64,000 nt of DNA from Methanocaldococcus infernus ME (lineage in GTDB: Archaea; AGJL01; Methanococci; Methanococcales; Methanocaldococcaceae): assembly GCF_000092305.1 (NCBI RefSeq), contig NC_014122.1, positions 992,001 through 1,056,000 of the forward strand. Direction: 5' to 3'. Position 1 is the first letter of the stretch, and every line of letters starts with the position of its first letter. The notes under the pieces were generated by a model. The model was not told where the DNA came from. It saw nothing but the letters and a program-made list of their open reading frames with translations, and made no database searches. The translations under genes and the position numbers were made by a program. Below, in pieces: positions 8,133-9,692 of the stretch.

Positions 8133-9086
8133 TTAAATTGATCTTAATTCTTCAGCCCATTTTTTAAATCTTCTAATTTCAATTTCTAACATTTCTAACA
8201 TATCTGGATCTAATGGTCTTCCAGCTAATTTTTCAATATATAAGAAAGACATTATATGGTCACTTGGTGTTAACTTGTCATTAACCTTAACATTCTCTTC
8301 CTCTCCACCAAAAAATCTCATATTTTTAGAGTATCTTAATAACTTTAATACTACTTTATTAGATATCCAACCTATTTTATTGTAATAGTCTAAGACATCA
8401 GGCAAATTTGAAGTTCCAACCTTACTAACTAAGAACTGTAACCACTTAAAAGCTAATGCTGTTGATATAGGATCTTCTGGAATGTCATTTAATCTATAAC
8501 CCTGTTCCTCACCTAACATTTCTTCCACCTCTTCAATCCCCTCTACATCAGGAATTTCTTTAGGAATCTCCTCTTTTTCTTCTTCAACTTTTATTTCTTC
8601 TTCCTCTTCTAACTCAATTTCTTCAGGCTCTATTTCTTCCTCTTCTATTTTAATTTCTTGTTCTTCTATGGGTTTTTCTTCTTTAACTTCTTCAACTTTT
8701 ATTTCTTCTTCTTTCTCTTCTTTCTTTTCCTCTATTTCACTTTTTTCAATCTCTTCAGAAATCTTTGAGGAAGCTACAACAGTGGTTAATTTCATTATAG
8801 TATCTAACTTCTGCTCTAAAGATTGCAATTTTTTATTCATTTCTTCTATTTCATCTCTACTTGTCTTACTCTTGGATAATACTTCAGATATTCTCTCAAC
8901 AATCCTATCCAATTGCCTCTTAGTTATCCTTCTACCTTTTAAATTATTTTTTAATAAGATGATCACAAAAGAAGGTAATTTAGATTTAAGATTTTCTAAA
9001 TATTCTTCTATTTCATCATCAGTTAAAACTTCCTCATCAGGAAGAATTTCCAATGATGAAGCTTCACTTATTGCCTTTTGAATCAT
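8133..9086 (-). CDS. flaD: archaellum accessory protein FlaD (ArlD)
   Basis: Cytosolic switch-complex component. The 317 residues have three parts: an N-terminal helical region (1-105) with coiled-coil character, a very acidic Glu/Lys-rich linker (about 110-195) that is low complexity, and a C-terminal FlaD/E domain (about 200-317) homologous to FlaE. The start ATG 9086 has a strong GAGGAGG ribosome site and lies 23 bases inside the end of flaC, so it can be translated independently if flaC reading fails. This matters because flaC is frameshifted. Confidence 0.92.
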   Translation of the reverse strand: MIQKAISEASSLEILPDEEVLTDDEIEEYLENLKSKLPSFVIILLKNNLKGRRITKRQLDRIVERISEVLSKSKTSRDEIEEMNKKLQSLEQKLDTIMKLTTVVASSKISEEIEKSEIEEKKEEKEEEIKVEEVKEEKPIEEQEIKIEEEEIEPEEIELEEEEEIKVEEEKEEIPKEIPDVEGIEEVEEMLGEEQGYRLNDIPEDPISTALAFKWLQFLVSKVGTSNLPDVLDYYNKIGWISNKVVLKLLRYSKNMRFFGGEEENVKVNDKLTPSDHIMSFLYIEKLAGRPLDPDMLEMLEIEIRRFKKWAEELRSI

Positions 9087-9662
9087 GTTTATCCTCCTCA
9101 GTTACAAGCTTTATTATCTCTTCTTCTAACACCTCTTCAATAATCTTCTCAAGATCAACATTTAACTGATTTAGATAGAGAGATCCTAAGATTATTAAGT
9201 CATTTGTCAACTCCTCCACAGTTTTTTTAAGTCTTTTATACTCAGTTTCAAGCCTTTCTAATTTCTCTAAACTTGTAGCAGTAATCTTAGAGACCCCAAT
9301 AAATGGGTTTATTTGATTAGAAACTACTTCATACAAGGCCATTATATCTTGGAGATTTTCATTTATTTTATTAAGCTCAATTCTTAGCATTTCATTTTCT
9401 TTTCTTAGGTTGTTTAATGAAGACTCAAGCCTTGGAATTCTTGTTTCTATATCCCCAACCTTAGCCATTAAATTTTCAGTAGTTTCCATTAATTCCCTAA
9501 CAGTTCTCTCAATCTCATCTAATCTTCCACTTTCCTCCTCAAGATCTTCAAGTATCTCCTCCTCTAATGGAGGAGACTCTTCCTCGGGGGGCTGGTCTTT
9601 TTTTTTATTTTTAATTGTGAAAGTTTAGATTTAATTTTTTCAATAAGGTCTTTTATGTTCAT
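9064..9662 (-). CDS. flaC: archaellum accessory protein FlaC (ArlC), split by a -1 frameshift at an A9 tract
   Basis: Coiled-coil cytosolic switch-complex protein, partner of FlaD and FlaE. ATG 9662 has an AGGTGA ribosome site after flaB3 and opens a frame beginning MNIKDLIEKIKSKLSQLK, but this frame stops at 9564-9566. The rest of the protein (acidic region, then coiled coil, stop at 9064) is in the -1 frame and has no ATG, GTG or TTG before Met 9489, well inside the protein. Re-reading one base at A AAA AAG (9603 to 9597, minus strand) joins the two into a 199-residue FlaC. A C6 tract (9586-9591) just after could also hold the indel. Candidates are sequencing error, programmed or transcriptional slippage, or phase variation. 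Confidence 0.85.
9555..9576 (-). other. perfect 8-bp hairpin downstream of the flaC slippery tract
   Basis: On the minus strand TCTCCTCC, a 6-base loop and GGAGGAGA form a perfect stem-loop. It lies inside the flaC coding sequence, in the region encoding SPPLEEE. The two arms also resemble an anti-ribosome-site and a ribosome-site sequence (GGAGG). Whether it is functional or a by-product of Glu/Pro codons cannot be told from sequence. Confidence 0.45.
9597..9603 (-). other. candidate -1 slippery heptamer A AAA AAG in flaC
   Basis: Read on the minus strand in the frame set by ATG 9662, the codons are AAA AAA AAG, so the heptamer A AAA AAG is in exactly the phase used by classical -1 slip sites. 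After a one-base slip the next codon is GAC, which continues the long flaC frame. Two nearby structures could help: an 8-bp hairpin 20 bases downstream (9555-9576), or a weaker 5-bp alternative stem starting about 11 bases downstream. The 20-base spacer is longer than usual. Use as a recoding site is unproven. Confidence 0.5.
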
Positions 9663-9692
9663 AATGTTTCACCTTTAAAAAGGTTAAAAAGT

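What the first reader, a model, noticed from the sequence alone, without database searches (positions are those of the whole stretch)
9564..9662. flaC is split at an in-phase A AAA AAG slip site
Seen: ATG 9662 has a good ribosome site after flaB3 and encodes a plausible FlaC N-terminus, but its frame stops at 9564-9566. The remaining FlaC lies in the -1 frame without a usable start. The zero-frame codons at the break are AAA AAA AAG, exactly the classical -1 heptamer, in an A9 tract (9598-9606), with an 8-bp hairpin 20 bases downstream. Known: FlaC is part of the archaellum switch complex; -1 recoding on A-rich heptamers is documented in an archaeon. Inference: FlaC may be made by ribosomal or transcriptional slippage, giving a fixed ratio to FlaD, or the tract may switch FlaC on and off. 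A C6 tract nearby offers the same.
Basis: partly seen in the sequence, partly recalled or inferred. Interest (0 to 1): 0.72.

Follow-up and report, generated by a model that had tools for sequence, protein, structure and literature searches.

The report
Conserved reading-frame slip makes archaellum FlaC
In heat-loving methane-making archaea the gene for FlaC, a protein needed to build the swimming motor, is permanently split across two reading frames at a run of nine or more A's, and the same split in every congeneric species that has the gene indicates that the cell must "slip" there to make FlaC.

Summary
ATG 9662 opens a 32-codon frame that ends at 9564. FlaC continues in the -1 frame and has no ATG/GTG/TTG until 9489. 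The break lies on A9 (9598-9606).

All ten genomes of the genus that carry flaC (one per species) have the same split: ribosome site, ATG and conserved N-terminus, then A9 (A11 in one), then FlaC in the -1 frame. Methanothermococcus-type genomes and one neighbouring genus are split at an A10 about eight codons earlier, followed directly by TAG. Methanococcus-like genomes have an intact gene without the tract.

Codon evolution shows zero-frame selection before the tract and -1-frame selection after it. The only other conserved A9 split found is chlD, a published recoding case. This excludes sequencing error and pseudogene and argues strongly against phase switching.

Best explanation: programmed -1 realignment makes FlaC, with RNA polymerase adding an A slightly favoured over ribosomal slippage. 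The hairpin and C6 tract are not conserved. The 'fixed ratio to FlaD' is untested. This is a new member of a known kind. I found no earlier report, but could search only open-access papers and not GeneTack's unnamed clusters.

The parts
9669..9673 (-). Ribosome binding site (GGTGA) of flaC
   Evidence: Sequence; similar GGTG/GGGG sites precede the ATG in relatives
9564..9662 (-). Zero-frame ORF: FlaC N-terminus, then a short out-of-frame tail (32 aa and stop)
   Evidence: first 18 codons under purifying selection in this frame, pN/pS 0.37
9598..9606 (-). A9 slip tract
   Evidence: A9 or longer in 10 of 10 congeners
9597..9603 (-). A_AAA_AAG heptamer in phase with the zero frame
   Evidence: Sequence
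9067..9624 (-). FlaC body in the -1 frame (stop codon 9064-9066), no ATG/GTG/TTG before 9489
   Evidence: pN/pS 0.10 in this frame
9554..9577 (-). Hairpin 20 nt downstream of the tract, 9 pairs; not conserved, so probably incidental
8133..9086 (-). flaD; its start overlaps the end of flaC (ATG 20 nt before the flaC stop)

Best explanation
flaC here is a programmed-frameshift gene. Translation starts at ATG 9662. Full FlaC (199 aa) is made only when the reading frame moves by -1 at the A9 tract. This happens either because RNA polymerase inserts one A (slightly favoured, about 55-60% given that slippage occurs) or because the ribosome slips back one base on A_AAA_AAG. Unslipped expression gives a short lysine-rich peptide that ends about 10 codons later. 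The likely effect is to cap or gate the amount of FlaC, an archaellum motor/switch protein. Shown here: the split, its conservation, the selection in both frames and the upkeep of the tract. Inferred: that the shift occurs in the cell, at which step, how efficiently and why.
For: Same split and same -1 register in 10 of 10 congeneric flaC genes, tract A9 (nine) or A11 (one). Same layout at A10 in six genes of two sister genera. Purifying selection in the zero frame before the tract and in the -1 frame after it. Long A-runs are rare in this genome: one in 429 kb of proxy CDS against about 24 expected, and it is chlD. chlD, published as recoded in this genus with 40% shift at A9 in E. coli (PMC3711429), has the same layout in 12 of 12 genomes. 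FlaC is needed for archaella in M. maripaludis, and Methanocaldococcus swims fast (PMC4187195), so FlaC is presumably made. For the polymerase route: run length always 9 or more, following base G, C or T, no conserved stimulator, in-frame A_AAA_AAG not avoided (145 against 133 expected), unlike E. coli (PMC3711429).
Against: No mRNA or protein data were available. The ten genomes share ancestry, and L004 and L005 are very close. Methanococcus-like genomes and L026 have intact genes, so the split is not needed for FlaC function in general. Long A-runs are also depleted between genes, so mutation contributes to their rarity. G004 has A9 in about a dozen apparently intact genes. One MAG contig (L027/L047) has A9 where its relatives have A10, which gives the other register.
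Confidence: 0.9

Rival explanations
1. Purely ribosomal -1 slippage on A_AAA_AAG/C (programmed ribosomal frameshifting), with the length of the A-run only helping. This is the same overall claim as the best explanation, with the ribosome and not RNA polymerase doing the slip.
For: The heptamer is in ideal phase; in g3/g4 a stop codon follows the tract directly; this genome has a hairpin at a plausible distance; -1 recoding at A-rich sites is described in archaea (PMC8211752).
Against: In-frame A_AAA_AAG is not avoided in the genome; tracts are always 9 or longer although the heptamer needs six As; no conserved hairpin.
Confidence: 0.38
2. Phase variation: the tract changes length by DNA replication slippage and switches FlaC on and off.
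For: Homopolymers are slip-prone; tract lengths of 9, 10 and 11 occur among species; one MAG contig (L027/L047) has A9 where relatives have A10.
Against: None of the ten congeneric genes and none of the seven tract-bearing g3/g4 genes is in frame; long A-runs are rare in this genome generally.
Confidence: 0.03
3. Sequencing error or pseudogene.
For: Homopolymers are error-prone; one genome has cfbE split at A9 while the other relatives found are intact.
Against: Same register in ten separate genomes, selection in both frames, and motile relatives.
Confidence: 0.01
4. FlaC is translated on its own from an internal start (for example ATG 9489), and the upstream ORF is a leader.
For: ATG 9489 follows a weak AGGGA in this genome.
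Against: That ATG is absent in L004/L005. The 30 codons between tract and ATG are under main-frame selection (0.28). The -1 frame often opens only at the tract, leaving no start codon, and the upstream N-terminus resembles that of intact Methanococcus-like FlaC.
Confidence: 0.04

Closest known systems
chlD (Mg/Co-chelatase) -1 frameshift gene of Methanocaldococcus (Antonov 2013, PMC3711429)
   Same: Same organisms, same A9 tract (A10, A11 once each), same -1 register; the zero frame stops soon after the tract and the -1 frame is closed just before it.
   Different: chlD yields a large zero-frame protein (about 340-380 aa, a small chelatase subunit) and a fusion; flaC yields only a 14-37 aa peptide and the fusion.
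Thermus thermophilus dnaX (transcriptional realignment at A9, cited in PMC3711429)
   Same: Thermophile; run of nine As; frame change by RNA polymerase slippage is the proposed route here too.
   Different: Bacterial RNA polymerase; both dnaX products are useful; the slip in dnaX ends the protein, whereas here it is needed to make it.
Citrobacter rodentium tssM1 (A11 transcriptional frameshift, PMC4256274)
   Same: An interrupted gene of a large machine is rescued by RNA polymerase adding As in a poly-A tract.
   Different: The tract is near the 3' end and both products are needed; bacterial.
Sulfolobus solfataricus fucA1 (alpha-L-fucosidase, reviewed in PMC8211752)
   Same: Archaeal gene split at an A-rich site and rescued by a -1 shift.
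   Different: Close relatives have full-length genes, so the split is not conserved; flaC is split throughout one genus and in sister genera.

Membership tests
Programmed frameshift gene (either mechanism) | Slip-prone site at the overlap of two frames, conserved across species with the same shift direction | tested here: met
   10 of 10 congeners and 6 of 7 tract-bearing g3/g4 genes in the -1 register
Programmed frameshift gene (either mechanism) | Both frames under protein-coding selection on their own side of the site | tested here: met
   pN/pS by frame
Programmed frameshift gene (either mechanism) | Trans-frame protein made in the cell | not testable with these tools
   No proteome data available
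Programmed -1 ribosomal frameshifting | X_XXY_YYZ heptamer in phase | tested here: met
   A_AAA_AAG/C in the genus; A_AAA_AAA then stop in g3/g4
Programmed -1 ribosomal frameshifting | Conserved stimulator (hairpin or internal ribosome site) | tested here: not met
   Downstream fold well below shuffles in only 4 of 16 genes; no shared GGAGG-like site before the tract on inspection. Some known sites lack stimulators.
Programmed transcriptional realignment | Homopolymer of about 8-9 or longer at the site | tested here: met
   A9-A11 in every tract-bearing gene
Programmed transcriptional realignment | mRNA population of mixed tract length | not testable with these tools
   No RNA reads available
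Phase variation | In-frame and out-of-frame tract lengths among genomes | tested here: not met
   0 of 10 in frame in the genus
FlaC (PF05377) | FlaC_arch domain and position between flaB and flaD | tested here: met
   72.9 bits against a cut-off of 27.8; neighbouring ORFs

The most novel reading that the evidence does not exclude
Archaeal RNA polymerase slippage, not described as a natural regulator in the archaeal papers I could read, gates archaellum assembly: FlaC dose, and through the flaC-flaD overlap FlaD too, is set by slippage at an A9/A10 tract that arose at two different positions of the same gene in thermophilic Methanococcales and is absent in Methanococcus-like relatives. Slippage may respond to temperature or growth state.
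Probability: 0.3. Interest if true: 0.8.

Novelty: new member of a known kind. Interest (0 to 1): 0.62.

Why it matters
Reported frameshifting in archaeal chromosomes is so far limited to a few genes, such as the Sulfolobus fucosidase and chlD. A further, deeply conserved frameshift site, in a gene needed for a motility machine, would show that frameshifting is a standing part of gene expression in these archaea. It gives a clean natural comparison (split in thermophiles, intact in Methanococcus-like relatives) and a direct test of RNA-polymerase versus ribosome slippage. In practice, FlaC may well be annotated with a truncated N-terminus in these genomes.

Tried and rejected
C6 tract as alternative slip site: absent in relatives. 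Hairpin as general stimulator: not conserved. Internal ATG start: not conserved, and contradicted by the selection data. A9 depletion as proof of selection on its own: weakened, since long runs are depleted between genes too. A third A9 gene in this genome (L090): tract absent in homologues. cfbE-like gene split in one genome: intact in the other relatives found, so probably an error or local indel. Outgroups beyond the order: only five distant loci found, all with an open frame and a possible start.

Full report
Observation. All coordinates in the finding hold. ATG 9662 (- strand) with GGTGA at 9669-9673 opens a frame of 32 codons that stops at 9564-9566. The FlaC body (PF05377, E=2.8e-20) is open from 9624 to the stop at 9064-9066, in the -1 register relative to that ATG, and its first ATG/GTG/TTG is codon 45. 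The junction is A9 at 9598-9606, read ATA AAA AAA AAG.

Source. The window lies in a single-contig genome of 1,328,194 bp.

Conservation in the genus. Of 14 genomes in the family (all one genus), ten carry flaC above the family cut-off. In all ten the FlaC body has no ATG/GTG/TTG near the tract, lies in the -1 register from a conserved RBS-ATG, and the junction is A9 (nine genomes) or A11 (one). Two of them (L004, L005) are very close to each other, so the ten are not fully independent. The zero-frame product is 22-37 aa.

Sister genera. In genera g3 and g4 the same gene is split at A10, about eight codons nearer the start. The zero frame reads MPNISEIIEEIKKK (or near it), then TAG directly after the tract, and the body follows in the -1 frame (six genes). 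Named records with these sequences are Methanothermococcus MAGs. One MAG contig (L027/L047) has A9, hence the opposite register; it may be an assembly error or a real variant. Genus g2 (seven genomes, Methanococcus-like, unnamed) and one g3 genome (L026) have intact genes without the tract. The two tract positions suggest two origins, or migration of the tract; no tree was built to test this.

Selection. Before the tract, pN/pS is lowest in the zero frame (0.37 in the genus, 0.13 in g3/g4; 0.11 in the intact g2 genes). In the conserved body after the tract it is lowest in the -1 frame (0.10 and 0.08). The first 30 codons after the tract, upstream of the internal ATG, also show it (0.28 against 1.2 and 1.5 in the other frames). 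So both halves evolve as protein-coding sequence, each in its own frame.

Tract upkeep. In 429 kb of proxy coding sequence there is one sense run of nine or more As against about 24 expected from synonymous shuffles, and none of 102 Lys-Lys-Lys triplets is AAAAAAAAA. That single run is in chlD. The whole genome holds nine distinct A>=9 tracts on either strand. Those that clearly lie inside a coding frame in the sense direction are chlD, flaC, and one gene 26 codons before its end whose tract is not conserved. A second genome (G001) has six tracts in all, again including chlD and flaC. A third (G004) has A9 in about a dozen apparently intact genes, so the rule is not strict. Runs are depleted between genes too, so mutation contributes; the persistence of this tract against that trend points to selection for it.

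Positive and negative controls. chlD, published as a -1 recoded gene in Methanocaldococcus with 40% shift at A9 and 63% at A11 in E. coli (PMC3711429), shows the same layout in all 12 genomes checked: A9 (A10 and A11 once each), zero frame ending within three codons, -1 frame closed just upstream of the tract. By contrast a cfbE-like Mur-ligase gene is split at A9 in one genome only and intact in the other relatives found, which is what an error or local mutation looks like.

Mechanism. RNA polymerase insertion of one A and -1 ribosomal slippage on A_AAA_AAG would lead to the same protein. In favour of the polymerase: tracts are always at least nine long; the following base varies; no hairpin is conserved; in-frame A_AAA_AAG is not avoided in coding sequence (145 against 133), whereas in E. 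coli it is underrepresented (PMC3711429); and the A9 run of Thermus dnaX works this way (cited in PMC3711429). In favour of the ribosome: the heptamer is in ideal phase, and in g3/g4 a stop codon follows directly. I put the polymerase route at 55-60% given that slippage occurs.

Function. FlaC is needed for archaella in M. maripaludis, and M. jannaschii and M. villosus are among the fastest swimmers relative to size (PMC4187195), so FlaC is presumably made. The short unslipped product suggests dose control and not two useful proteins. flaC overlaps the flaD start (20 nt in the genus, fewer in the other genera), so early termination could also lower FlaD; this is inference.

Novelty. Reviews of archaeal recoding and of frameshifting (PMC8211752; PMC5009743, of which only the first 300,000 characters are held) do not mention flagellar or archaellum genes, and other searches found nothing. 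Antonov 2013 found 146 clusters, most not named in the text; flaC could be among them. I class it as a new member of a known kind: conserved poly-A frameshifting, in a new gene and a new cellular machine.

Noticed in passing
L085:1501-1509 (own genome 122760-122768): chlD has the same A9 split as flaC; it is conserved in 12 of 12 congeneric genomes checked and is a published recoding case.
   Followed up: yes
L090:1501-1509 (own genome 1262005): A9 inside a secreted-looking 183-aa protein just before its C-terminal membrane anchor; slippage would drop the anchor. The tract is absent in homologues.
   Followed up: yes
L137:1226-2424: cfbE-like Mur-ligase gene split at A9 in Methanocaldococcus sp. 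SG1 only; intact in the other relatives found, so error or local indel is likely.
   Followed up: yes
L027 (= L047) flaC junction: A9 in a MAG contig whose relatives have A10: either an assembly error or a natural length variant in the other register.
   Followed up: partly
window 9064-9086: flaC and flaD overlap (flaD ATG 20 nt before the flaC stop, with GGAGG ahead); an overlap is seen in the related genomes inspected.
   Followed up: partly
L080 and L082 (own genome 26392 and 28861): Two stretches with identical sequence around an A10 tract, in opposite orientation about 2.5 kb apart: an inverted repeat.
   Followed up: no
own genome, 464 kb sampled: Runs of A or T of 8 or more are depleted both in genes and between them, so long homopolymers are rare for mutational reasons as well.
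   Followed up: partly
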